A DNA stretch of 64,000 nucleotides from contig JAEURR010000003.1 in assembly GCA_016788115.1 (NCBI GenBank), forward strand, positions 124,001 to 188,000, in the 5' to 3' direction. Below are positions 42,130 through 62,796 of the stretch, piece by piece. The notes beneath the pieces are model-generated. The model was not told the DNA's origin. It searched no databases and saw only the letters and a program-made list of their open reading frames with translations. Origin of the DNA: Chthonomonas sp. (GTDB taxonomy: Bacteria; Armatimonadota; Fimbriimonadia; Fimbriimonadales; Fimbriimonadaceae). A program made the position numbers and the translations under genes. Numbering within the stretch: the first letter of the stretch is position 1; every line of letters begins with the position of its first letter.

Positions 42130-42942
42130 TTACCCGTCAGCTGAGTTAAGGGTCAGGATGCTGACTTCCGGCGGGCAATAGAGCCTAACATTCAGCGTAA
42201 CCGAGGTCCCAACCCCGCGAGTCACGAACAGCGGCGCGCGGGCGGTGGGATAGAAACCGGAGATGTACCGCCGCGCCCCGTAGGGCGAGAAGATCGGCAA
42301 CCCGAATGGCAAACAGATTTGGCCACCATGCGAGTGGCCGGCGATCATGAGACTCGTTCGCGGGTCGATCCGGCTGACGAAATCCGGCTCGTGGAAGAGT
42401 GTGATAAGCGAATCGGGGGCTTCGCTTCCGAAGAGGTCGTGACGGTCCATTCCGTAAACTCCGTCGTCGATGCCGGCGATGGTCACGCCTTGGAAAACCG
42501 CTGACTGATTCGAGAGCATCTCCACACTGGAGCGATTGATGACCTCGCTGATGATCTCCGGTCCCCTCGAACCATAGTCGTGGTTCCCAAGCGTGGCATA
42601 GGTCTTGATCCCAAGCGAATCAACTTCCTCCATCACCGCTCGGAGGTACCTCAGGTTGGGGGCATGAACCTTGTTTAGGAAGTCACCGGGCATGACCAGG
42701 ACATCCGGTTTCTCAGGTTCTACGAGGCGCACCGCCTGGATCGCTCGATCTCGCTCGAAGGGGGTATTGCAGTGGATATCGGCAATGACCGCGACCTTGA
42801 AACCGTTGGCGCGCCAGCGCGGCAGTTCGAGCGTCCGCCGCTCAACGCGCAATTCGTGGCTTGACTCGCCGAAGTATCCCAGGCTAGCGCTTCCCGCCAT
42901 TGCCGCCGCCATTCCCAAAACCTGGCGACGCGTGACGCTCAT
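42130..42942 (-). CDS. Metallophosphoesterase with Tat-type signal
   Basis: A 270-residue paralogue of the next gene. It starts MSVTRRQVLGMAAAMAGSAS, a twin-arginine signal typical of the YkuE group. Motifs are IADIHCNTPFER, MPGDFLNKVH, LGNHDYGSRG, LFHEPDFV and IAGHSHGGQICLP. It is exported folded, with metals bound. It overlaps the methyltransferase/MTHFR gene by 4 bases. Confidence 0.92.
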   Translation of the reverse strand: MSVTRRQVLGMAAAMAGSASLGYFGESSHELRVERRTLELPRWRANGFKVAVIADIHCNTPFERDRAIQAVRLVEPEKPDVLVMPGDFLNKVHAPNLRYLRAVMEEVDSLGIKTYATLGNHDYGSRGPEIISEVINRSSVEMLSNQSAVFQGVTIAGIDDGVYGMDRHDLFGSEAPDSLITLFHEPDFVSRIDPRTSLMIAGHSHGGQICLPFGLPIFSPYGARRYISGFYPTARAPLFVTRGVGTSVTLNVRLYCPPEVSILTLNSADG

Positions 42943-44774
42943 TCGTTCACAGCTTCCATCACCCGCACGGCAATGGTCGGATTTCCAAACGGCGGCATCA
43001 AGTACAGTCCTTGCGCCTGGCTCCGGACTTTGCTCGCCAGCGCCTGAGCTTCTTCGATCCCAAAGTTCATGGCCTGCTCATCATCAATCGCTGCGGCCAT
43101 CTTGGCGCGCAAGCGCTCAGGAACTTCGATACCCGGCACCTCGTTGTGCATGAACTCTGCATGGCGCGACGATCGTAGCGGCAGCACCCCAACGAAGATG
43201 GGCAGACCCGCACGCACGGCACATTCGATCGCGCGGTCGATGTGTTCGGGCTCAAAAATCGGCTGAGTGTAGATCACGTGGGCTCCCGCATCCACCTTGC
43301 GTGCAAGCCGGTCCAACTCTAGGACCATGTCGTGGGCCAGCGGATTGAAGGCGATCGCGATGGTAAATGCGCATTTCATTCCAACCGTGTTGCCCGCCAA
43401 ATCGATCCCGTCATTGAATCTGCTGAGGATCCGGACCAGGCCGATGCTATCGACGTCGTAAACGCTCGTCGCGCTGGGGTAGTCGCCGATATTGGCCGGG
43501 TCGCCGGTGACCGCAAGGATGTTCTTGACTCCCAAAGCGTGTGCCCCAAGCAGGTCGGCCTGGACCGCGAGCAAGTTTCGATCGCGGCAGGCGAAGTGCA
43601 TCATCACTTCGACGTCCACCGAATCTTGGATGATCTTCGAGACGGAAAGCGGATTCATCCGCAACCGCGCTCGCGCGCCATCCGAGATGTCGATCAAGTG
43701 TGCGCCTCGTTCGGCGAGCAGTTTGCTACCGTCGAGCACCTTTTGGACGTTCAGGCCGCGCGGCAGGTCCATCTCGACGGCGATGGTGAATTGCCGCTGG
43801 GCCAGTCGTTCGGCTAGACGGGTCGGCTCGGCTTGCACGAGTGGCTTGGCAGCACGCGGCTCGGCACTTGTCGCGGGTCGCGCTTGCTTCTTGCGAATGC
43901 CCGCCTCGACCACAGTGCGCAACGCGTGGATGTGGTCGGGCGACGTACCGCAGCAGCCGCCAACAATGGCCGCACCCTCTTCGACTAACCGGGCACACGC
44001 CTTTCCGAAGTACTCGGGGCTGGTGTCGTACACCACGGTCCCCTTCACCAATTGGGGGAGCCCGGGGGTCGGGAAGGCCATCACCGGCAAGTCCGTCGCC
44101 TCGGAGAGTTGACGCACGATATCCACCATGCGTTGGGGTCCCACAACACAGTTCGCACCGAGGGCATCCACGCCCATCTGTGCGATCCTGGCGGCACAGA
44201 TCCCCGGCAGTCCCTCGCTCAAGGCTTCACCATCTTCGATGAACGCCTTGCTCACGATCACCGGGAGCGGACATGCGTCCCGGACCGCGCGGACGGCAGT
44301 GGCGATCTCGTCGAGGTCAATGTAGGTCTCCAGCAAGATCGCGTCGGCACCACCTTCGGCCAGCGCCTGGGCTTGTTCGAACACCGATTCGTACACTTGT
44401 TCGTGGGTGAGCGTTCCGATGGGAGCGAGCGCCTTTCCTGCAGGCCCAATGGCTCCGACCACGAGCTTGTCCGGACCTGCCGCCTCGCGCGCGATTTCGG
44501 CGGCGCGGCGGTTCAGCTCGCGTACGTCCCAGTTCGTGTGCTCCAAACGGATGCGGCTTGCAGCAAAAGTATTGGTCTCGACGAAGTCACTTCCCGCCGC
44601 GAAATACTCCTGGTGGACCCGGAGCACGAGATCGGGATCGAGCAGACACGCCAGGTCGTAGGGGGTCTTGTCGAACCCCAGCATTTGCAGTCGGGTTCCG
44701 GTGGCGCCGTCGCCAACAAGCACTCCGCGGGCAAGTGCGTCCATAAATCGTGAAGTCATCGGTTGGGCCATCAT
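42939..44774 (-). CDS. Bifunctional homocysteine S-methyltransferase / 5,10-methylenetetrahydrofolate reductase
   Basis: A 611-residue fusion. Residues 1-300 are a homocysteine methyltransferase with zinc cysteines in GANCVVGP and GGCCGTSPDH. Residues about 320-611 are a methylenetetrahydrofolate reductase with NILAVTGDPANIGDYP, YTQPIFEPEHIDRAI and VGVLPLRSSRHAEFMHNEVPG. The same architecture exists in Bacillus YitJ. It makes methyl-folate and transfers methyl to homocysteine; whether the cobalamin-dependent second half of MetH exists elsewhere is unknown. The ATG at 44774 is followed closely by alternative ATGs. Confidence 0.93.
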   Translation of the reverse strand: MMAQPMTSRFMDALARGVLVGDGATGTRLQMLGFDKTPYDLACLLDPDLVLRVHQEYFAAGSDFVETNTFAASRIRLEHTNWDVRELNRRAAEIAREAAGPDKLVVGAIGPAGKALAPIGTLTHEQVYESVFEQAQALAEGGADAILLETYIDLDEIATAVRAVRDACPLPVIVSKAFIEDGEALSEGLPGICAARIAQMGVDALGANCVVGPQRMVDIVRQLSEATDLPVMAFPTPGLPQLVKGTVVYDTSPEYFGKACARLVEEGAAIVGGCCGTSPDHIHALRTVVEAGIRKKQARPATSAEPRAAKPLVQAEPTRLAERLAQRQFTIAVEMDLPRGLNVQKVLDGSKLLAERGAHLIDISDGARARLRMNPLSVSKIIQDSVDVEVMMHFACRDRNLLAVQADLLGAHALGVKNILAVTGDPANIGDYPSATSVYDVDSIGLVRILSRFNDGIDLAGNTVGMKCAFTIAIAFNPLAHDMVLELDRLARKVDAGAHVIYTQPIFEPEHIDRAIECAVRAGLPIFVGVLPLRSSRHAEFMHNEVPGIEVPERLRAKMAAAIDDEQAMNFGIEEAQALASKVRSQAQGLYLMPPFGNPTIAVRVMEAVNE

Positions 44775-45510: not shown

Positions 45511-45768
45511 GTGGGTATGTGCATGAAAGATCTTGGTGAATGCTTTTACGGATCCGTAACCGTCGGTGAGCGCGGACAGATCGTCATCCCCGCCGAGGCA
45601 CGGGCAGACCTGGACATCAAGCCAGGCGAGAAATTGCTAATCCTGCGGCATCCGGTACACAACGGGCTGATGGTCGCCAAGCTGGAAGAGACAATGGGGT
45701 TCTTTGAAGAAATGAACGCACGATTGCAGAACCTGAAATCGAAAACCGCCGACGAGGATAACCCATGA
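45511..45768 (+). CDS. AbrB/SpoVT/MazE-type DNA-binding protein
   Basis: An 85-residue protein whose residues about 12-55 form a swapped-hairpin AbrB domain: YGSVTVGERGQIVIPAEAR, then LDIKPGEKLLIL. A helix (ETMGFFEEMNARLQNL) follows. The start is uncertain: GTG at 45511 or ATG at 45517 or 45523. An imperfect inverted repeat lies across 45487-45520 and may be its own operator. The stop overlaps the TolC start as ATGA, so it is the likely local regulator of the efflux operon. No toxin gene accompanies it. Confidence 0.85.
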   Translation: MGMCMKDLGECFYGSVTVGERGQIVIPAEARADLDIKPGEKLLILRHPVHNGLMVAKLEETMGFFEEMNARLQNLKSKTADEDNP

Positions 45769-47054
45769 ATTTGCTTATCTATGCAGTGCTAGCCACGGTG
45801 CTCGGACCCGAACCCGGCGCAGTTTTGACGCTGGACGTTGCCATCCAGACCGCACTCAGCAACTCGCCGGCCATCAAGATCGCGCAGTCCAATGTCCGCA
45901 AGAGCGAGGCGCAAGTTGACCAGGCAAAAGCTGGTACCTTGCCGCAGGGCGGGCTTCAAGGAACGTACACTCGCTACGACTCCAAACAGCCCTTCAGCGG
46001 GCGCAACGACAGCAAGACCGTCGGCGCACAACTCACGTGGAACTTGGACCTTTCGGGTTCGATCAGCACCGCGGTGCGCGCGGCGTCATTCGCCGTTCGT
46101 GCGCAGCAGGCCGGTGTGGATTCCGCCGCCAACACCTTGCGAGCTGACGTCCGGACCGCGTACTACTCCGTGCTTCGCGCGCAGTGGGTGGTGAAGACGA
46201 ACTCGGAAGCGGTCGAGAACTCGCAGCGTCGACTGGACATCGGTCGCCAGAAGTTCGCGGTTGGCAGCGTCGCTCAATTCGACGTCGTTCGGCTTGAAAC
46301 TGCGCTCACGCAGGCTCAATCCGACCTCGTGACGGCGGAGAACGGGCTGAAAACGGCGAAGCAGCTCCTCAACAATTTGCTGTTCCGACCGATTGAGACC
46401 GACTACGAAGTCGCCGAGATCGAACCGGGTGCTAAGCCGGTACCAGAACGTGACGCAACGGTCCGCATCGCCTTGAATAATCGGCCCGAGCTCATCGCAC
46501 TTCAGTACCGGAAAGTGTCGCTGGAGAACATCCGGCGCATTCGTGAGCGCGGCCTGGCACCGAACCTTACGGTCGGCGTCAGCGCGCAGCACGTCGTCGA
46601 TGCAGGCGCGTTCCAGCGCAAGAACACGGTCTCGGGTTCTCTCACCCTGAACTGGCCGGTGCTCGACGGCGGACTCACTCGCGCCCGGGTGAACGAGGCA
46701 AAGGAAGACGAGGCTCAGGTCGAGCTAGCGCTGCAACAGACAACGTTGGGCGTCTCGCTGGAAGTCCAAGTCGCGCTCAACCAGCTCATCACCGCTCAGG
46801 AGCAACAGCGGTTGGCGCAGCAGCAAACGAAAGAAGCCGCAGAGGCTCTGCGGATCGCCAATGTGCTCTTCGAGAGCGGCCGCGGGATCCTGCTCGACGT
46901 GACCACCGCCCAGGAGGTTTCGACCCGAGCCTCGCTGGCACTCTACAACGCCAACTACAACGTGCTGACCGCCTGGTGTGCGCTGCAGAAGGCGACGGGA
47001 CGCGACGACTTTTCAACGGCCAACGCGCCGAAGCAACAGGGGAACAAAGAATGA
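45765..47054 (+). CDS. TolC family outer-membrane efflux channel
   Basis: A 429-residue outer-membrane factor. After a signal peptide come two repeated helical modules of the TolC fold, for example LDVAIQTALSNSPAIKIAQ near 25 and DATVRIALNNRPELIALQY near 230. The long amphipathic helices rich in Ala and Gln (ALTQAQSDLVTAENGLKTAK) form the periplasmic tunnel. It is placed between the AbrB gene and the adaptor with 4-base overlaps, so the pump is made from one transcript. Confidence 0.92.
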   Translation: MNLLIYAVLATVLGPEPGAVLTLDVAIQTALSNSPAIKIAQSNVRKSEAQVDQAKAGTLPQGGLQGTYTRYDSKQPFSGRNDSKTVGAQLTWNLDLSGSISTAVRAASFAVRAQQAGVDSAANTLRADVRTAYYSVLRAQWVVKTNSEAVENSQRRLDIGRQKFAVGSVAQFDVVRLETALTQAQSDLVTAENGLKTAKQLLNNLLFRPIETDYEVAEIEPGAKPVPERDATVRIALNNRPELIALQYRKVSLENIRRIRERGLAPNLTVGVSAQHVVDAGAFQRKNTVSGSLTLNWPVLDGGLTRARVNEAKEDEAQVELALQQTTLGVSLEVQVALNQLITAQEQQRLAQQQTKEAAEALRIANVLFESGRGILLDVTTAQEVSTRASLALYNANYNVLTAWCALQKATGRDDFSTANAPKQQGNKE

Positions 47055-48507: not shown

Positions 48508-51500
48508 ATGGGACTTACAAAAATCGCCATCGAGCGACCCGTTTTCATCCTGATGCTGATGCTCTTGTGCATCTTCGGTGGGTTCAACGCCTACTTCTCG
48601 ATGCGCAAGGAAGAGAATCCGGATGTCTCGTTCGGCGTGGCTACCGTCACGACCATCTATCCTGGCGCGGGCCCCGAGGAGATGAACACCCTCGTATCGC
48701 GCAAGGTCGAAGAGGCGGTCGCGGGCATCAGCAACCTCTTGGAAGTCACTTCGAATTCGCAGGAAGGCGTCTCGGTCGTCGTGCTGAACTTCAACGTGGG
48801 CACGAACATGGACACCGCACTCAGCGACATCCGGGCCAAGGTGGACGGGATTGTCGGCGAGCTTCCGCGTGATGCTGAGAAGCCCACGGTATCCAAGTTT
48901 GACTTCTCGGCGGGTGCGGTCCTGACGTTGGCGGTGAACTCGGACACCCTCAACAGCCAGCAGCTCCGCGACCTGATGGACCAGAAGGTCAAGGACCGAT
49001 TCGGCCAGATTCCGGGCGTCGCCGCAGTCACGGTTACCGGTGGCGACATTCGCGAGATTCAAGTTCAGCTCAAGCGCGATCGATTGCTGACGTACGGAAT
49101 CGGGATCACCGAAGTCCAGCGGGCGCTAGCGGTAGCATCGCTGAACGCTCCAGCGGGCCGCATGGTCGGCACCGACCGCGAGACCTCGGTCCGCGTCCTC
49201 GGCGAGTTCAAGAAGGTCGCCGACATTGAGAACATGGTGCTGTCGATCCAGTCTCCGGACCGGCAGGGCCGTGCGACCTCGGTACGCCTGGGCGACATCG
49301 CGACGGTACGCGATGCCGTTGCTGAGCGCCGCAGCTTCAGCCGCCTAAATGGAAGCGATGCGATCACCATCGGCATCCTCAAAGCTCGCGACGGCAACGC
49401 GATTGAGATTACGAAGCAAGCACGCGCGCTCTTGCCGAAGCTCAAGGATGAGTACGGCGTCACGTTTGTCCAGACCTTTGCATCAGCCACCCGCATCGAG
49501 GAGTCCCTGTTCGACCTCAACCTGACCCTGATCATCGGCATCCTGCTGGTCGCGGCCATCGTCTATCTCTTCCTGCACAACGTGCGAGGGATGATCATCG
49601 TCGCCATCGCCATTCCGGTCTGTCTGCTCGCGACGTTGATGTTCTACAAGCTGTTCGGCTTCACCGTCAACAACTTGTCCATGCTCGCCTTGTCGCTGGC
49701 CGTTGGTGTTCTCGTCGATGATGCCATCGTCGTCTTGGAGAACATCTATCGTCACCTCAAGATGGGAGAGGGTCCGGTGGAAGCGGCCATCAACGGACGA
49801 TCTGAGATCGGCCTCGCAGCCATCGCCATCACGCTCGCAGACGTCGTCGTGTTCCTCCCGGTCGGATTCATGGGCGGCGTGGTCGGACAGTTCTTCCGAC
49901 CGCTGGGCATCGGCTTTGCCATCGCGGTCATGCTCTCGCTCTTCGTGTCGTTCACCGTGACGCCGATGCTGGCCTCGCGCTGGTACCGCCAGGGCGAAGA
50001 CGCCGAAGCACTTGGAGGCAAGTTCGCACGTCGGTTCGAGCAGATCTTTGGCCGCGCCGAACATTCGTATCGCCGATCGCTGGAGTGGTCGCTGAACCAC
50101 CGATGGTTCGTGTTCATCATGGGGTGGATCGCCCTTATCGGGATCATCATGTTCATGTTCGCTGGCAGCGCCAAGAAGTTCAGCGACATCATGCCGATGA
50201 TCATGGGCGGTATCGTGGCATCTGTCGCCCTCTGCCTCGTCGCGATGGGCATCAGCTACTGGAGCAAGCGTGTCCAGAAGTTCGCCATTTGGGGGACGCT
50301 GTTCGTGTTCTTCTTTGGCCTGGGGCCGCTCAGCATTATCGGCAAAATGTTGCCAGAAGGGAGCGGGATGAAGCCCATGCTCACGCCGCCTGCTAGTTTG
50401 GTGGTCGCGCTCCTGATCATGGGGCTCGCGGCTTTGATCGCAAACATCAATCGCCCGCTCATCCGGACGCGTATGGTTGCTAACGCGATTGGCTTCGGAC
50501 TGATCCTCGCTCTTTTCCCCATCGGCGGATTTGCTTACGGCCAGTGGAAGCAGGATCAACTCTTCAAGTTCCAGTTCTTCCCCGTCGCCGACGGCGGCAA
50601 GGTCTCCGCGACGGTACAACTCCCGCCCGGGGCGAGCCTTGACGCCACCAAGAAAGTCGTCGAGCGGATCGAGAACATCGTCATGAAGCACCCGGACACT
50701 CGCTACGTGGTGTCGCGCGTCGGACAGAAGGGCGGCGGAAACTCCGCGGCCGACCAAGGTACGAACTACGCACAGGTCGACATCACGCTCAACGACAAGA
50801 CCGCGCTCCTCGACTCCGTTATGTTCTGGGTCAAGCATGAGGGCAAACTCCGGACCCGCCGAGACACCGCCGTCGCCGCCGACATGCTCGAAGCGATCGG
50901 GCGCGTCCCCGGTGCCAACGTCACTGTTTCCGCTTCGGATGCCAGCGGCTTTGGCGCGGCCATCCAGATGTCCTTCCGAAGTGACGACCGCGAGAAGCTC
51001 CTCGCCGCCGCCAACAAGATCAAAGATCGACTGGCCGAAGGCGCGGTGGAGGGGGTCATCAACGTGGACATCAGTTCGAAGGGCGGCAAACCCGAAGTTC
51101 AGGTTGTCCCCGACCGACCGCGCCTGGCAGACGCCGGCTTGAGCGTCGGCGAAGTCTCCCAAGCTCTGCGCGCCCTCTACGAAGGCAACACCGACACGCG
51201 GTTCCGGGTACTTGGCCAAGAGTATGACATTCGGCTGATGATGGATTTGGGAGACCGGAACAACCCGGACCTCCTCGGCCAAGTCCCGATCGCCTTCCAG
51301 CAAGGCAACCCCATCTTCGTGGATAGCGTGACGACTCGTCGCGATGGAACGAGTGTTGATAAGATCGAACGCCGCGATCGCCAGGAGGAAGTAAAGGTCA
51401 CCGCAGACCTGTTGCCTGGCAAGGCGGCAGGCACTGTTCAACAGCAGATCAACGACCTGATCCAAAAGGAGAAGCTTATGCCGGACGGCGTTGTGCTCAA

Positions 51501-52071
51501 GCCACTCGGCCAAGCCGACGTGCAACAACGTGAGAGCCAGTACCTGATGAGTGCGCTGTTCGTCGGGCTGCTGCTCGTCTACATGCTCCTTGCCTCGCTC
51601 TACGACAACCTGCTATCGCCGTTCATCATCCAGTTGGCGCAGCCGCAGGCACTCGTCGGTGCCCTGTTTGCGCTGGTGCTCACCGACAAGTCGCTCAACA
51701 TCGTCGGATTCATCGGCTTGATCGCGCTTGTGGGTCTGGTTGGTAAGAACGCCATCCTGCTCGTGGACTACACGAATACGCTCCGGAGCAGAGGTATGAA
51801 TCGGCACGATGCGATCGCGCAAGCCGGTCCGACCCGGCTGCGGCCCATTACGATGACAACCTTGGCAGTGCTGCTGGGCATGCTCCCGGTCGCACTTGCC
51901 ATCGGCCGCGGGTCTGAGTTCCGCGAGACCATTGGCATCACCATCATCGGAGGTATCGCACTTTCGACGCTCCTGACCCTGCTGGTCATCCCGTGCTCGT
52001 ACACGATCTTCGATGATCTTGGACAGCGACTTGCCAAGAAGCAGACTGAACCGGAGACGAGCGCAAGCTAA
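48508..52071 (+). CDS. RND family efflux pump with an extra hydrophobic insert
   Basis: A 1187-residue AcrB/MdtB-like inner-membrane pump; the usual length is about 1030-1050. It starts GLTKIAIERPVFILML, has the proton-relay pair in VGVLVDDAIVVLENIYRH and the second-half EPEFRET-like region RGSEFRETIGITIIGG. Residues about 553-680 carry four additional hydrophobic stretches (PMIMGGIVASVALCLVAMG, FAIWGTLFVFFFGLGP, SLVVALLIMGLAALI, NAIGFGLILALFPIGGFAYG) between the seventh helix and the second periplasmic loop, which resumes at FQFFPVADGGKVSATV. The substrate cannot be predicted. Confidence 0.92.
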   Translation: MGLTKIAIERPVFILMLMLLCIFGGFNAYFSMRKEENPDVSFGVATVTTIYPGAGPEEMNTLVSRKVEEAVAGISNLLEVTSNSQEGVSVVVLNFNVGTNMDTALSDIRAKVDGIVGELPRDAEKPTVSKFDFSAGAVLTLAVNSDTLNSQQLRDLMDQKVKDRFGQIPGVAAVTVTGGDIREIQVQLKRDRLLTYGIGITEVQRALAVASLNAPAGRMVGTDRETSVRVLGEFKKVADIENMVLSIQSPDRQGRATSVRLGDIATVRDAVAERRSFSRLNGSDAITIGILKARDGNAIEITKQARALLPKLKDEYGVTFVQTFASATRIEESLFDLNLTLIIGILLVAAIVYLFLHNVRGMIIVAIAIPVCLLATLMFYKLFGFTVNNLSMLALSLAVGVLVDDAIVVLENIYRHLKMGEGPVEAAINGRSEIGLAAIAITLADVVVFLPVGFMGGVVGQFFRPLGIGFAIAVMLSLFVSFTVTPMLASRWYRQGEDAEALGGKFARRFEQIFGRAEHSYRRSLEWSLNHRWFVFIMGWIALIGIIMFMFAGSAKKFSDIMPMIMGGIVASVALCLVAMGISYWSKRVQKFAIWGTLFVFFFGLGPLSIIGKMLPEGSGMKPMLTPPASLVVALLIMGLAALIANINRPLIRTRMVANAIGFGLILALFPIGGFAYGQWKQDQLFKFQFFPVADGGKVSATVQLPPGASLDATKKVVERIENIVMKHPDTRYVVSRVGQKGGGNSAADQGTNYAQVDITLNDKTALLDSVMFWVKHEGKLRTRRDTAVAADMLEAIGRVPGANVTVSASDASGFGAAIQMSFRSDDREKLLAAANKIKDRLAEGAVEGVINVDISSKGGKPEVQVVPDRPRLADAGLSVGEVSQALRALYEGNTDTRFRVLGQEYDIRLMMDLGDRNNPDLLGQVPIAFQQGNPIFVDSVTTRRDGTSVDKIERRDRQEEVKVTADLLPGKAAGTVQQQINDLIQKEKLMPDGVVLKPLGQADVQQRESQYLMSALFVGLLLVYMLLASLYDNLLSPFIIQLAQPQALVGALFALVLTDKSLNIVGFIGLIALVGLVGKNAILLVDYTNTLRSRGMNRHDAIAQAGPTRLRPITMTTLAVLLGMLPVALAIGRGSEFRETIGITIIGGIALSTLLTLLVIPCSYTIFDDLGQRLAKKQTEPETSAS

Positions 52072-53483
52072 TCTCGCCAACCGGGGTAGAGCGCGAGCGC
52101 GGCTGCCCCGTAGAGTCCCGCATGGGGACCGAACGGAGTCCTGGCGGCGTCCAGCTCAAGCCAGTCGCTGAGCCCGACGCCGCCGCAGACAACAATCGCC
52201 TCGGGATAGTAGATCGTGCGGACGATCTGTAGGGCCGTGTCGCATGCTGCCTGAGCGCGCTGACGCTGCTCGGCCGAGGGATTCGGGGTCAGAGCCGCCC
52301 CTCCGAGCGCGTCTTCGAAGGTCGATCCATCCGGGAGCGCGAGATCGTTCAGGCGCGGATAGCCACCCTGCGGCCCCATCAGAATCTTGCCTCGGTCCAC
52401 CACGCCGCATCCGACACCCGTTCCCAGGGCCAATGTCACGACACGTATGCCGGCAAAGTCGGCGTGGCAGGCGTGTCCCCATGCGGTGGCCAATCCATCG
52501 TTCAGCGCGACCACCTTGTGGTCCGGGAGCGCGGCTGCAAAGTTCGTTCCTACGTGGTTGGGGATGATCGGCTTCGCTTCAACGACTCGGGTGGTTCCAG
52601 GCGCGACGGTGCCACCGGTTCCGATGCCGATTCGCCGCACGTTCCATTTCTCGGCGACCTCGCGAATCCAGTGGGTGCGCGCATCGCGCTCCTGCGGCAG
52701 CTCGACCTTTTCGAGGTCGATCATCTGCCAGTTGGTATCAAATCGAGCGGCGCGCAACCACGTACCGCCTATGTCCACCGCCATCACCGATTCGTGCGGA
52801 TTGGCCGCCGCTGCCGAAAAGACTCGCGTCTGCTTGATCGGGTCGTTGAGTGCTCCCCCGACCACGACCGCACACGCACCCGCTCTGCGCGCGGCGGAGA
52901 CTTCCCAAGGCTGCGCATAACGACCTTCGGCGATGACCGGGATGTCGGTCCGAGCGCGAATCTCTCGCACCAGACTGATCGCTGGCCCGGGAGGAATCAT
53001 GCTGCTCTCCTCGGTATATCCCGCGAGCGTGGTGCCGATGAGGTCCACTCCGGCGCGGGCTGAAGCCATCGCCGAGGCGAGCGTGTCGCAATCGGCCATC
53101 GCGAGCCGCCCCGCCTCGTGGATGCGACGGACGAGGTCCGAAAGCTGGGCATCTCCGGGGCGGTAGCGCATGGTCCCATCGAGCGCGATCACCTCGCAGC
53201 CAGCTTCGATGAGCACGTCCACCTCGGCCAGGGTAGGGGTGATGTACACCCGGCTGTCGGCATACTCACGCTTGACCAGACCAATCGTAGGAACGCCTGC
53301 GGCTGACCGTATCAGCGCGATAGCTTCGAGCCCCTGCAATCGCAGGAAGCGCACCCCTTCTTGCACCGAAGCTTTGGCGAGTGGCAGGAGTGCGGCTGGC
53401 GGCTCCAAGGGGCCCGTGCTGGCCTGGACGCTGGCGATCAGCGGCGAGTCCGCAAGGATGGCCAGGAGTTCGGATCGTGTCAT
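52068..53483 (-). CDS. NanE-ROK fusion: ManNAc-6-P epimerase plus ROK-family sugar kinase
   Basis: A 471-residue fusion. Residues 1-225 are NanE-like TIM barrel (SPLIASVQASTGPLEPP, EVIALDGTMRYRPGD, PVIAEGRYAQPWEVSAA). Residues about 233-471 are a ROK kinase opening AVDIGGTWLRAARFD, with VALNDGLATAWGHA and LALGTGVGCGVV. The usual ROK zinc motif (C-x-C-G-x-x-G-C) is missing: the region reads GGYPRLNDLALPDG. NanK plus NanE would convert N-acetylmannosamine to GlcNAc-6-P in sialic acid or amino sugar use. The start at 53483 overlaps the deacetylase stop. Confidence 0.9.
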   Translation of the reverse strand: MTRSELLAILADSPLIASVQASTGPLEPPAALLPLAKASVQEGVRFLRLQGLEAIALIRSAAGVPTIGLVKREYADSRVYITPTLAEVDVLIEAGCEVIALDGTMRYRPGDAQLSDLVRRIHEAGRLAMADCDTLASAMASARAGVDLIGTTLAGYTEESSMIPPGPAISLVREIRARTDIPVIAEGRYAQPWEVSAARRAGACAVVVGGALNDPIKQTRVFSAAAANPHESVMAVDIGGTWLRAARFDTNWQMIDLEKVELPQERDARTHWIREVAEKWNVRRIGIGTGGTVAPGTTRVVEAKPIIPNHVGTNFAAALPDHKVVALNDGLATAWGHACHADFAGIRVVTLALGTGVGCGVVDRGKILMGPQGGYPRLNDLALPDGSTFEDALGGAALTPNPSAEQRQRAQAACDTALQIVRTIYYPEAIVVCGGVGLSDWLELDAARTPFGPHAGLYGAAALALYPGWRD

Positions 53484-54391
53484 GGCTGCACGAATGGTTT
53501 GGTCTTGCCCGATTTCAGTCGCGTCAACCAATCGTTGATGCCCAGCGGACCGTCATAGGCCCAGACGCGGGGCAAGTTCAGTAGCCTTCGCTTGGGGTCA
53601 TAGCAAGAGCGGGCCGGTCCACTCCCAGCGAGCACGACGGCTTCATAGTCCTTGAGCAGCGCGCGGTTCTTGGGGAATATCCCGTAGGGGAGCGCCAGGG
53701 TCCGGACCGTCAGCCCGTGCTGGCGAAGGAAGCCGTTGGTCTTATCAAAATCGGCCATGATCTCGGCGTCGGTCAGTTTGCTGAGATTGCTGTGGCGCCA
53801 GGTGTGCGCGGCGATCTCGCATCCCCATGCCTGCAACTGCTTCAGTTTGGGGATCCCCTGCTCCATCTTGCCGAACAGTCGATAGGGGTTCACGAAGAAG
53901 GTGGCGCGCGCTCGGAAGTCCGGGTACTGCCTCTCGAACCCCTTCATGATCCCAATCGCGCAATTGGGATCGAGCGAGCCGTCTTTGAGCGTGGCGTACT
54001 GCGTGGGGTCTGAGTCGTCGAACGTGATGACGACCGGCGAAGCTCCTGGCGGGATGTCGATCTTCTTGTCGATGTACTGGGCGAGCGTGATCGGTCGATA
54101 GCCCAAGCGATACAATCGCTCCAGATCCTTGCGGAAATTGGCGTACGAGCGATCGTACGGTCCGTCCGTTGGCAGGATGCGGTGGTACATCAGAATCGGG
54201 ATCACGCCCATCTTGTTGGCCTTTCGGCTGGTCACCCGCGCCGGTTCCGGCGGCTTCGGGGGAGGCGTGCTAGCGGCTCGCAGCGTGGTCGCGGTCACGA
54301 TTGCTGGCTCGACCGCCACGCGAGGGCTCGAAGAACAACCGACGAGGCAGACCGCAAGCATTGCTGCGGCGGTACATCGGCGCAGGTTCAT
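53480..54391 (-). CDS. Polysaccharide deacetylase lipoprotein
   Basis: A 303-residue CE4-type deacetylase with a lipoprotein signal (MNLRRCTAAAMLAVCLVGC). NodB motifs are VVITFDDSDPTQY (catalytic and metal Asp) and AAHTWRHSNLSKL (H-x3-H). The YHRILPTDGPYDRSYANF segment is characteristic of secreted CE4 proteins. It may remove acetyl groups from peptidoglycan or an exopolysaccharide. It overlaps the response regulator stop and the NanE-ROK start, so the three are coupled. Confidence 0.9.
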   Translation of the reverse strand: MNLRRCTAAAMLAVCLVGCSSSPRVAVEPAIVTATTLRAASTPPPKPPEPARVTSRKANKMGVIPILMYHRILPTDGPYDRSYANFRKDLERLYRLGYRPITLAQYIDKKIDIPPGASPVVITFDDSDPTQYATLKDGSLDPNCAIGIMKGFERQYPDFRARATFFVNPYRLFGKMEQGIPKLKQLQAWGCEIAAHTWRHSNLSKLTDAEIMADFDKTNGFLRQHGLTVRTLALPYGIFPKNRALLKDYEAVVLAGSGPARSCYDPKRRLLNLPRVWAYDGPLGINDWLTRLKSGKTKPFVQP

Positions 54392-59707: not shown

Positions 59708-59749
59708 GTCTACGAGTATGTCTGATTCGAGTGTGGGGTGGGTTTGGCT

Positions 59750-59777
59750 TTGATATTGCTGTAACTTGCCGTACACT
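59750..59777 (+). promoter_or_regulatory. Likely promoter of the metalloprotease gene
   Basis: TTGATA (59750-59755) and TACACT (59772-59777) with a 16-base spacer resemble a sigma-70 promoter. Transcription from about 59784 would leave a leader of roughly 45 bases before the ATG at 59830. Confidence 0.5.
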
Positions 59778-59829
59778 CTTTGAAATACTTTCCGTCGCTT
59801 CATGGGCGACCGGAGTGAAGATAGCTATC

Positions 59830-62796
59830 ATGAACTCATCCCAACTTAACCGGGCAGGTTCCCGGATTTTCTTGGTCGTCCTTGCATGTCTTGCCGGGGC
59901 GTCTTCGTTTGCGCAAATCAAGGGCTGGAAAGACCTCAAGGTCACCAGCAAGCTTGCTGAGAAGAGCACCATCCTTGGTCGCGTCAGCGACGCCAAAACG
60001 TATTCGCTAGATCTCGCGACGCTAAGGCAGTCGCTTGCGAATGCGCCCGAAGAGCGGGCGGTGGGTCTCTTCTCAAGCCCCGCTGTGATCACGCTCCCGA
60101 TTTCGGACGGGACCTGGCAACGCTTCGCCGTCGCTGAATCGTCGATTTTGAGCCCGGAACTCCAGGCCAAGCTCCCCTACATCAAGACGTACCTCGTCCA
60201 AGGTCTCGATGACCGGACACGCAACGGCCGAATCAGTGTCACCGCACTCGGGTTCCACGCCATGGTTTTCAGCCCGAACGGCACGGAGTACATCGATCCA
60301 ATCGCCGTTGGTAACACCCGCGATTACGTGGTGTACAACCGCGAGAACCTCTCAAGGATCCCCGGTTGGACGTGCTACGTTACCGAGTTCGACGAGAACT
60401 TCATCAACTCGGAGCGCGAGGGGTCAGGCGACCTCTTCCCGATGGCCACTGGCGCAAACTTGAAGACGTACCGGTTGGCGATGAACGCCACCGGCGAGTA
60501 CTGCAACTACTTCGGTTCGAATACTGGGACCGGCTCGGCGGCGGCCGTATCGGCGATGGGCGTCACGATCAACCGCGTGACCGGTATCTACGAGCGAGAC
60601 TTCTCCATCCGGCTCAATGCCGTGTACCTTGGCCCCGCTTCCGAGCCTGCAGTGCTCGACCCGGCCACGGACGGATTTACGAACTCAAACGTCTCGACCC
60701 TCCTTGGACAGAACCAGACCCGCTGCGACACGAACGTAGGTAACGCAAGCTACGACGTCGGACACATCATGGGCACCGGAGGTGGCGGTGTCGCTGGACT
60801 CGGCGTGGTCGGGGTCACCGGCCAAAAGGCTCGCGGCGCGACTACCGGCAGCCCTCCGACGACCGACGCATTTGATATCGATTACGTCGCACACGAATTG
60901 GGTCACCAGTTCAACGGAGACCACACATTCGCAGGGACAACAGGAAGCTGTGCTGGAAACGGCAATCCGTCTACCGCTTTCGAGCCAGGCAGCGGTTCGA
61001 CGATCATGGCTTACGCAGGCATCTGCACGGGCCAGAATGTCCAAAGCAACTCAGACGATTACTTCCACCACGTGAGCTACCAAGAGGTGCTCACGCTGCG
61101 CGCCTTGGCAACGGGCACCTCGACTGCAAACGGTAACAGTGCCCCGGTCGTCACCGTTCCGGCAACCAGCTACACGATTCCGTTGAGCACGCCGTTCGTG
61201 CTTTCGGCGTCGGCGACGGACGCCAATGGCGATGCGCTGACGTACTGCTGGGAGCAGTACGCCACCACGCCGCTTTTCCGCAGCATCAAGCCCGTCACTG
61301 TCGGTTACCGGGTGTTCCCGAAGCTGACGACGATTTTGGGCACGGCCGTGGCGAACTACGAGACGCTCGCCACGACAACGCGGACGATCCCGTTCCGCGT
61401 GAGCGTGCGTGACAACCGCGCCGGCGGCGGTGAACTGGAATGGAAGTCCGTTTCGGTCACCATGTCCGGTACGGCATTCACCGTGGATACCGCCAATTCC
61501 GCTACGGCATGGGTCCCGGGTGCTACGGTCCCCGTCGCTTGGACGGTGGGCGGATCCGGTGCCACTGCAAATGTAAACATCACGATGTCCACAAATGGTG
61601 GGACAAGCTTCTTCACTGGCGCGGAAACGACGCTACTGGCCTCAACCGCCAACTCGGGTAGCGCTTCGATCACCGTTCCCTGGGTGAACACCACCACGGG
61701 TCGCATCAAGATTCAAGGAGTTAACAACATCTTCTTTGACATCAACAATGCGAGCATCACGATCAATGAGAGCGCGGCCGTCAACATGACGGTGCCCGCG
61801 ACGATCAAGTCGGGTGCTACGGGCACAGGCACGATCTTGCTCGCCAATCCGGCTCCGGCGGGAGGTCTTACCGTCAACTTGACTGAAGCGAGCTCGTACA
61901 TGTCGGTGCCGAGCACGGTCGTGGTGCCTGCCGGTGCGACGAGCGCGGACTTTGCGATCACGACGGTGGCCGCACCCTCGAATCAGAACGTTCAAATCGG
62001 CTACAACCGATCGGGCTGGTCGAAGGCCTCGTCCACGTTCGTGATCCAGAAGAACACTGCGCCTGGCGGTGTCGCGGATAGCTACAACACGCCGTACGCA
62101 ACCACCCTGAATATCGGGGCTCCGGGCGTGCTGGGCAATGACACCGATGCCGAACTCGACACGTTGACCGCGGCTCTGCTCACGACCACGGCGAACGGCT
62201 CCCTGACGCTGAACGCGAACGGTAGCTTCACCTACACCCCGAACGCTGGTTTCTCGGGTGTGGATAGCTTCACTTACCGCGCGAGCGACTCGGCGCTGTT
62301 TAGTCCGTCGACCACCGTGCAGATCACGGTCGGTCCGCGACCTCAGCTGTTGGGCACGGTCACGCTCTCCGGTTGGACGGCTCCTGTGACTGGGCAGCCA
62401 GTCGAGGTCCAGATCCGGACGGTGGGTTCGCCCGCTCCGCTCTACACGTTCAACGTAGCCCTCAGCGCCAGTGGCCAGTTTGTGATCAATCTGGTTCCGC
62501 CGACTCTGTCGGGCAACTACGACGTGGCGATCAAGGGCCAGAAGTGGCTGCGAGGCACGGTGGCAAGTGTGAACTTCTCAACGACCGTGGCCACGGCCAA
62601 TATCAGCCTGATCAACGGAGACGTGAACAACGACAACCAAATCGACTTTTTCGACTACCTCATCATGAGCGATACGTTCGAAAAGTCACTGGGGGACTCG
62701 GGTTACGATGCCCGGGCCGACCTCAACGGAGATAATACGGTCGACTTCTTCGACTATCTCATCTTGAGCGCCGGCTACGACCTAGAAGGCAACTAG
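59830..62796 (+). CDS. Secreted reprolysin-like metalloprotease with cadherin-like and dockerin domains
   Basis: A 988-residue protein with a signal peptide (RIFLVVLACLAGASSFAQ). A propeptide-like region precedes a zinc protease domain: AHELGHQFNGDH (H-E-x-x-H-x-x-G-x-x-H) and the Met-turn STIMAYAG. Then follow Ig-like regions, a cadherin-like/VCBS domain (VADSYNTPYATTLNI..., GSFTYTPNAGFSGVDSFTYR) and a C-terminal dockerin type I with two calcium loops (DVNNDNQIDFFDYLIMSD and DLNGDNTVDFFDYLILSAGY). The ATG at 59830 starts the signal peptide; longer frames are unsupported. No cohesin is in the window. Confidence 0.9.
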   Translation: MNSSQLNRAGSRIFLVVLACLAGASSFAQIKGWKDLKVTSKLAEKSTILGRVSDAKTYSLDLATLRQSLANAPEERAVGLFSSPAVITLPISDGTWQRFAVAESSILSPELQAKLPYIKTYLVQGLDDRTRNGRISVTALGFHAMVFSPNGTEYIDPIAVGNTRDYVVYNRENLSRIPGWTCYVTEFDENFINSEREGSGDLFPMATGANLKTYRLAMNATGEYCNYFGSNTGTGSAAAVSAMGVTINRVTGIYERDFSIRLNAVYLGPASEPAVLDPATDGFTNSNVSTLLGQNQTRCDTNVGNASYDVGHIMGTGGGGVAGLGVVGVTGQKARGATTGSPPTTDAFDIDYVAHELGHQFNGDHTFAGTTGSCAGNGNPSTAFEPGSGSTIMAYAGICTGQNVQSNSDDYFHHVSYQEVLTLRALATGTSTANGNSAPVVTVPATSYTIPLSTPFVLSASATDANGDALTYCWEQYATTPLFRSIKPVTVGYRVFPKLTTILGTAVANYETLATTTRTIPFRVSVRDNRAGGGELEWKSVSVTMSGTAFTVDTANSATAWVPGATVPVAWTVGGSGATANVNITMSTNGGTSFFTGAETTLLASTANSGSASITVPWVNTTTGRIKIQGVNNIFFDINNASITINESAAVNMTVPATIKSGATGTGTILLANPAPAGGLTVNLTEASSYMSVPSTVVVPAGATSADFAITTVAAPSNQNVQIGYNRSGWSKASSTFVIQKNTAPGGVADSYNTPYATTLNIGAPGVLGNDTDAELDTLTAALLTTTANGSLTLNANGSFTYTPNAGFSGVDSFTYRASDSALFSPSTTVQITVGPRPQLLGTVTLSGWTAPVTGQPVEVQIRTVGSPAPLYTFNVALSASGQFVINLVPPTLSGNYDVAIKGQKWLRGTVASVNFSTTVATANISLINGDVNNDNQIDFFDYLIMSDTFEKSLGDSGYDARADLNGDNTVDFFDYLILSAGYDLEGN

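What the first reader, a model, noticed from the sequence alone, without database searches (positions are those of the whole stretch)
50165..50550. RND pump with about 125 inserted residues and four extra hydrophobic stretches
Between the seventh transmembrane helix and the second porter loop lies an insert absent from AcrB-type pumps. It may form extra helices that bind a partner or change pump stoichiometry. An even number of helices keeps topology.
Basis: partly seen in the sequence, partly recalled or inferred. Interest (0 to 1): 0.55.

Follow-up and report, generated by a model that had tools for sequence, protein, structure and literature searches.

The report
Efflux pump with extra membrane helices
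An AcrB-type drug pump of an Armatimonadota-like bacterium carries four extra membrane helices at one spot beside the pump's drug entrance, and in its relatives the number of extra helices varies between none, two, four and probably six, although this pump class is normally described with a fixed set of twelve.

Summary
The RND permease at 48508-52071 (1187 aa) has about 135 residues (553-688; 50164-50571) between TM7 and porter subdomain PC1 that AcrB-type pumps lack, with four hydrophobic helices and a positive-inside pattern. It is not a quirk of one gene. Most relatives in the window's family carry a two-helix version; related families have zero or two; one relative probably has six. On trees built without the insert, four-or-more helices versus fewer needs at least ten changes, and insert versus none at least six. 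Two relatives about 94% identical in the flanking core differ by one hairpin. In the window, the second hairpin is the common one. The first is homologous to that of other four-helix pumps, but is not a detectable duplicate of the second. No match for the insert was found in Pfam, NCBIfam, PDB sequences or plasmids, nor in seven literature searches. The pump itself looks ordinary and active: relay residues, fold and OMP-MFP-RND operon are kept. The insertion lies just before the residue matching AcrB Phe563, the reported guard of the TM7/TM8-groove entrance. I therefore infer a built-in accessory at that entrance, at modest confidence. A tolerated ornament is the main rival.

The parts
45765..47054 (+). 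TolC-type outer membrane efflux protein, first gene of the operon
   Evidence: PF02321 195.8 bits
46976..48502 (+). RND periplasmic adaptor (membrane fusion protein); a likely later start is at MKSIRW, with a lipoprotein-like signal (read by eye)
   Evidence: TIGR01730 190.6 bits
48508..52071 (+). RND permease, 1187 aa, with inserted helices
   Evidence: PF00873 810 bits in two stretches; proton relay D404 D405 K1080 R1110 T1117 aligned to AcrB D407 D408 K940 R971 T978
50101..50163 (+). TM7, residues 532-552
   Evidence: helix 532-552 in the model; alignment to AcrB
50164..50571 (+). the insert, residues 553-688
   Evidence: gap between the two halves of all RND profile matches
50191..50262 (+). 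extra helix a, residues 562-585 (first hairpin)
   Evidence: model; hydropathy
50284..50349 (+). extra helix b, residues 593-614 (first hairpin; low model confidence)
   Evidence: model; hydropathy
50386..50442 (+). extra helix c, residues 627-645 (second, common hairpin)
   Evidence: model; hydropathy; profile of two-helix relatives 34.5 bits over helices c-d
50455..50550 (+). extra helix d, residues 650-681, with conserved Gly674 and Lys681, running into PC1
   Evidence: model; conservation over 47 family sequences
50575..50577 (+). Phe690, matching AcrB Phe563 at the TM7/TM8-groove (channel 1) entrance
   Evidence: alignment, 18 of 18 rows F; role of Phe563 from PMC8242077

Best explanation
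The gene encodes a normal proton-driven, tripartite AcrB-type pump into which a pair of membrane hairpins (four helices) has been built between TM7 and PC1 (shown). The chain leaves TM7 on the periplasmic side, crosses the membrane four more times and returns to the periplasm to start PC1, so the rest of the fold is unchanged (supported by sequence, charge pattern and models). Because the graft point is a few residues before the position of AcrB Phe563, which guards the entrance of channel 1 in the TM7/TM8 groove, the helices most likely pack against that groove and reshape lateral entry of lipophilic substrates, or of lipid, from the membrane: a fused accessory subunit, comparable in role to AcrZ, with helix number changed repeatedly as substrates or membranes differ (inferred).
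For: Graft position relative to AcrB: residue 688 aligns to AcrB S561 and 690 to F563; TM7/TM8 groove as entrance of channel 1 and Phe563 as guarding residue (PMC8242077, passages read). Intact relay; AcrB-like fold of the two-helix relative, Z about 52 to AcrD and AcrB, with its hairpin helices 567-587 and 591-619 at pLDDT about 77-86; operon OMP-MFP-RND on one strand in 67 of 68 loci; only AcrB-type pump gene found in the window's genome. Constraint in the last helix: Gly674 47 of 47, Lys681 46 of 47. Repeated change of helix number. Precedent: AcrZ, one helix bound to AcrB's membrane part, changes activity for some drugs (PMC7267776, passages).
Against: No coordinates of the models could be read, so packing of the hairpins on TM7/TM8 was not seen; the middle of the insert is poorly modelled. 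Relatives with none (7 of 7 read in family f2) keep the same operon, so the helices are not needed for the basic pump. The two conserved residues sit next to PC1 and may only serve the linker. In family two-helix forms the last helix is less conserved (mean identity 0.45) than TM7 (0.57) or the core helices TM4, TM5, TM9, TM10 (0.85).
Confidence: 0.42

Rival explanations
1. Tolerated ornament: the TM7-PC1 junction is a permissive site where a membrane hairpin can be gained or lost without much effect; the helices sit in lipid and do little.
For: Helix number changes at least ten times in 62 orthologs and presence at least six times at phylum scale; family f2 works with none; low conservation of most hairpin columns.
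Against: 82 of 85 family genomes keep a match to the flanked insert profile, the 3 without one being 72-89% complete; every one of the 47 family sequences read has two or more extra helices; one Gly and one Lys nearly invariant.
Confidence: 0.3
2. Docking platform: the extra helices bind another membrane protein (for example a small AcrZ-like protein) or an additional pump.
For: Membrane-embedded, variable surface on a pump; partner binding by AcrB's membrane part is known (AcrZ, PMC7267776).
Against: No further gene was seen to be required: only the OMP-MFP-RND set was tested for conservation and no partner candidate was looked for systematically.
Confidence: 0.13
3. Trimer reinforcement: the helices fill the lipid-filled space between protomers and stabilise the trimer in a particular membrane.
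For: Helices added at the membrane domain; AcrB is a trimer with membrane domains that hold lipid (established knowledge).
Against: Not testable here; nothing places the hairpins at the protomer interface.
Confidence: 0.1
4. Artefact: frameshift, misassembly, or duplication of a normal part of the fold.
For: None found.
Against: Open frame with a positive-inside pattern; homologous inserts in many genomes; helices of the first hairpin score 14.5 bits with a profile of other long forms against a best decoy hairpin of 1.7.
Confidence: 0.02

Closest known systems
AcrB of E. coli (PF00873, HAE-type RND permease)
   Same: Fold, two porter loops, proton relay residues, operon with adaptor; TolC-type gene in the operon here
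   Different: AcrB has no helices between TM7 and PC1; the window pump has four and 1187 instead of 1049 residues
MdtB (PDB 9lyq, best sequence match among solved structures)
   Same: Both halves align, best E 3e-120
   Different: 4 residues where the window has 138
NCBIfam NF033617 RND_permease_2 (best NCBIfam model)
   Same: 754.6 bits in two stretches
   Different: Below its cut-off of 1250; the model has no insert
AcrBZ complex (AcrB with the one-helix protein AcrZ)
   Same: Extra membrane helix material associated with the pump's membrane part (works-like comparison only)
   Different: AcrZ is a separate one-helix protein; here two hairpins are fused into the permease. No sequence relation shown
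Two-helix and no-insert orthologs in Armatimonadota-like genomes
   Same: Same operon and same graft site
   Different: Two or zero extra helices instead of four

Membership tests
ACR_tran / AcrB-type RND permease | Match to PF00873 over both halves | tested here: met
   810.4 bits, cut-off 28, two stretches
ACR_tran / AcrB-type RND permease | Proton relay Asp-Asp in TM4, Lys in TM10, Arg and Thr in TM11 | tested here: met
   D404, D405, K1080, R1110, T1117
ACR_tran / AcrB-type RND permease | Operon with adaptor and outer membrane channel | tested here: met
   67 of 68 loci
ACR_tran / AcrB-type RND permease | AcrB fold | tested here: met
   Foldseek to AcrD 8f3e_B E 5.6e-66, TM 0.77/0.88; two-helix relative Z 52.3, rmsd 3.3, 987 aligned to 8f56_A
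ACR_tran / AcrB-type RND permease | Exactly twelve membrane helices | tested here: not met
   Four further helices by hydropathy and model; filed as a variant for that reason
ACR_tran / AcrB-type RND permease | Homotrimer | not testable with these tools
   Only monomers could be modelled
NCBIfam named RND subfamilies (RND_permease_1, RND_permease_2, 2A0602, 2A0601, MdtB, MdtC, AcrB, AcrD, OqxB) | Curated score cut-off | tested here: not met
   All below cut-off, each in two stretches
AcrZ-like accessory protein | Sequence relation to AcrZ | tested here: inconclusive
   Hairpin profile A5 against PDB sequences to E 10 gave only 7b0q_A at E 7.4; AcrZ was not compared directly

The most novel reading that the evidence does not exclude
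The TM7-PC1 junction of one AcrB-type pump lineage is an evolutionary cassette site: paired membrane helices are gained, lost and probably exchanged between pumps (0, 2, 4, 6), and each pair acts as a built-in lateral-gate subunit that sets which lipophilic substrates enter by the TM7/TM8 groove. The twelve-helix plan of RND pumps would then not be fixed.
Probability: 0.27. Interest if true: 0.72.

Novelty: new variant of a known kind. Interest (0 to 1): 0.5.

Why it matters
RND permeases are described with twelve membrane helices, and substrate entry from the membrane through the TM7/TM8 groove is an open and medically relevant question. Here nature has repeatedly added and removed helices within a few residues of that entrance, in otherwise nearly identical pumps (about 94% identical in the flanking core). 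These pairs are ready-made natural experiments: comparing a two-helix and a four-helix pump, or cutting the hairpin out, would show directly what the membrane side of the entrance contributes. If the helices turn out to be idle, the case shows instead that the fold tolerates whole hairpins at that joint, which is useful for protein design.

Tried and rejected
Duplication of the normal fold: rejected; decoy hairpins of the pump core score at most 4.8 bits with the profile of the common hairpin, against 34.5 for the window's second hairpin. Tandem duplication of the common hairpin as the source of the window's first hairpin: not supported (1.1 bits, 52 of 200 shuffles as high). It has support in some other long forms (L179 16.6 bits, L176 8.9, L135 7.2, 0 of 200 shuffles each; L175 6.4, 1 of 200), not in L172, L124, L180, L177, L178. 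Hairpin boundaries were set by hand.

One origin of the long form with vertical descent: held together as one clade, five long forms (window, L172, L124, L174, L179) lose 650 log-likelihood units, p-AU 2e-5; the group was chosen after seeing the tree, so the p value is indicative. So homologous first hairpins sit on unrelated branches: many losses or exchange between genes; I could not decide which. Nearest-neighbour identities by region gave no clear sign of exchange.

My interim reading that the two-helix insert is universal in the phylum was wrong: the first 20 loci outside the order had been picked by a profile that spans the insert. A search with the N-terminal half alone, from which I read 20 loci chosen by hand for short or doubtful frames, gave 14 without and 6 with an insert. 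A known domain in the insert: Pfam and NCBIfam gave nothing near a cut-off. Occurrence on plasmids: 2 records of 72,556, both flank only.

Literature: seven searches listed no paper on such an insert; only listings were seen, plus passages of PMC8242077, PMC7267776, PMC3924187 and one irrelevant passage of PMC8277102. Subscription papers are not covered.

Full report
WHAT IS THERE. The gene at 48508-52071 (+) encodes a 1187-residue RND permease, third gene of a TolC-type / adaptor / permease operon. Every RND profile or solved relative that matches it does so in two stretches, the first ending near residue 551 and the second starting near 689-690. Against MdtB 138 residues stand where MdtB has 4. 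Aligned to AcrB, residue 688 matches S561 and residue 690 matches F563.

IT IS FOUR HELICES. A simple hydropathy caller finds four helices in the insert. AlphaFold with 28 aligned sequences gives helices 562-585, 593-614 (broken), 627-645 and 650-681; confidence is low for the middle (pLDDT 40-55 from about 588 to 650) and fair for the last (63-86). The model of a two-helix relative from the same genus code (L146) shows a clean hairpin, 567-587 and 591-619, at pLDDT about 77-86. Of 75 insert-bearing proteins read, 73 give an even number of helices; the exceptions are L135 (called five, six by eye) and one short form called three. Loops that should be cytoplasmic carry 2.97 K+R per 10 residues, those that should be periplasmic 0.62 (84 loops each).

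THE PUMP IS OTHERWISE NORMAL. The proton relay of AcrB is intact (D404, D405, K1080, R1110, T1117). Foldseek gives AcrD and AcrB as nearest folds; the two-helix relative aligns to AcrD with Z 52.3, rmsd 3.3 over 987 residues. The three genes lie together on one strand in 67 of 68 loci of the family and order; the exception, L135, begins inside the permease gene. In the window's genome this is the only AcrB-type gene; the one other hit is a 33-bit match on another contig.

HOW IT IS DISTRIBUTED. In the order (113 genomes) the flanked-insert profile is matched in 82 of 85 genomes of the window's family f1 (the 3 without are 72-89% complete), in 8 of 8 of f5, 1 of 1 of f3 and 1 of 1 of f4. In f2, 16 of 18 match, but only by the flanks, and 7 of 7 read lack the insert. 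Of 47 distinct f1 sequences read, 35 have the short, two-helix form and 12 a long form; 2 fragments (L139, L149) and 12 duplicates were dropped before. The 33 named relatives carry Armatimonadota-type titles except one titled as an archaeon, so I infer that the window is from Fimbriimonadales or near it. Beyond the order, 20 loci picked by a profile that spans the insert all have two helices, while among 20 picked by hand from a search with the N-terminal half 6 have an insert and 14 do not.

HELIX NUMBER CHANGES OFTEN. On a tree of 62 orthologs built without the insert columns, long versus not long needs ten changes; for the eleven four-helix forms nine are forced by well-supported branches. 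L177 (four helices) and L193 (two) are 94-95% identical in both flanking core parts. The window's nearest relatives on the tree, L173 and L143, have two. On a phylum-scale tree insert versus none needs at least six changes. Quick trees were used throughout, with SH-aLRT support only. The sequences are mostly from metagenome-assembled genomes.

WHERE THE EXTRA HAIRPIN COMES FROM. A profile of 35 two-helix forms scores 34.5 bits on the window's second hairpin and 1.1 on its first (52 of 200 shuffles as high), so the second is the common one and the first is not a detectable copy. In a leave-one-out test the window's first hairpin scores 14.5 bits with a profile of the other long forms (best of 300 shuffles 8.2, best decoy hairpin 1.7); L172, L124, L174, L179 and L175 also pass with 0 of 300 shuffles as high; L176 (2 of 300), L181 (3), L178 (6), L177 (15) and L135 (97) are weak or fail. 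The homologous ones are not one clade on the core tree. Either a four-helix form is old and was lost many times, or the segment moves between genes; some long forms may be separate gains or local duplications (L179, L176, L135, L175).

HOW IT MOST LIKELY WORKS. In AcrB the TM7/TM8 groove is the entrance of channel 1 for small lipophilic drugs and detergent, with Phe563 as a guard (PMC8242077, passages). The window's helices are grafted onto the end of TM7, a few residues before the matching Phe690, which is Phe in 18 of 18 rows compared. The last helix carries a Gly conserved in 47 of 47 and a Lys in 46 of 47 family sequences. I infer that the hairpins shield or shape that entrance from the membrane side, as a built-in accessory; AcrZ is a precedent for a membrane helix that tunes AcrB (PMC7267776, passages). 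What is shown: the graft, the helices, the conserved residues, the changing number. What is inferred: packing on TM7/TM8 and any effect on transport. Against it: the no-insert relatives keep the same operon, the last helix is less conserved than TM7 (0.45 versus 0.57 mean identity among two-helix forms), and I could not read model coordinates.

KNOWN OR NEW. It is a member of the AcrB-type RND permeases by profile, relay, fold and operon, but breaks the twelve-helix plan, and it falls below the cut-off of every NCBIfam RND model it matches. The insert matches no Pfam or NCBIfam family and no solved chain at a meaningful level. Seven literature searches listed nothing on it. I file it as a new variant of a known kind. 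Occurrence in other phyla was not tested with genomes.

Noticed in passing
L145 (JADZEW010000031.1): Record titled Methanoregulaceae archaeon carries the operon and a permease nearly identical to L144 of a Fimbriimonadaceae MAG: probably a mislabelled or contaminated bin.
   Followed up: partly
L135:2-3220: Relative with an even longer insert (199 residues between the anchors where the window has 156, short forms about 93); by eye six helices.
   Followed up: partly
   Followed up: no
G146, contigs 17 and 40 (L265): One genome holds two pumps of this group, one matching the insert profile over its length and one without insert: a natural pair for comparison.
   Followed up: no
52068-53531 (-): Fusion of N-acetylmannosamine-6-phosphate epimerase (NanE) with a ROK-family kinase in one ORF.
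   Followed up: no
42939-44774 (-): Homocysteine S-methyltransferase fused to methylenetetrahydrofolate reductase.
   Followed up: no
59731-62796 (+): Reprolysin-like metallopeptidase with a cadherin-like domain and a C-terminal type I dockerin, outside the usual cellulosome setting.
   Followed up: no
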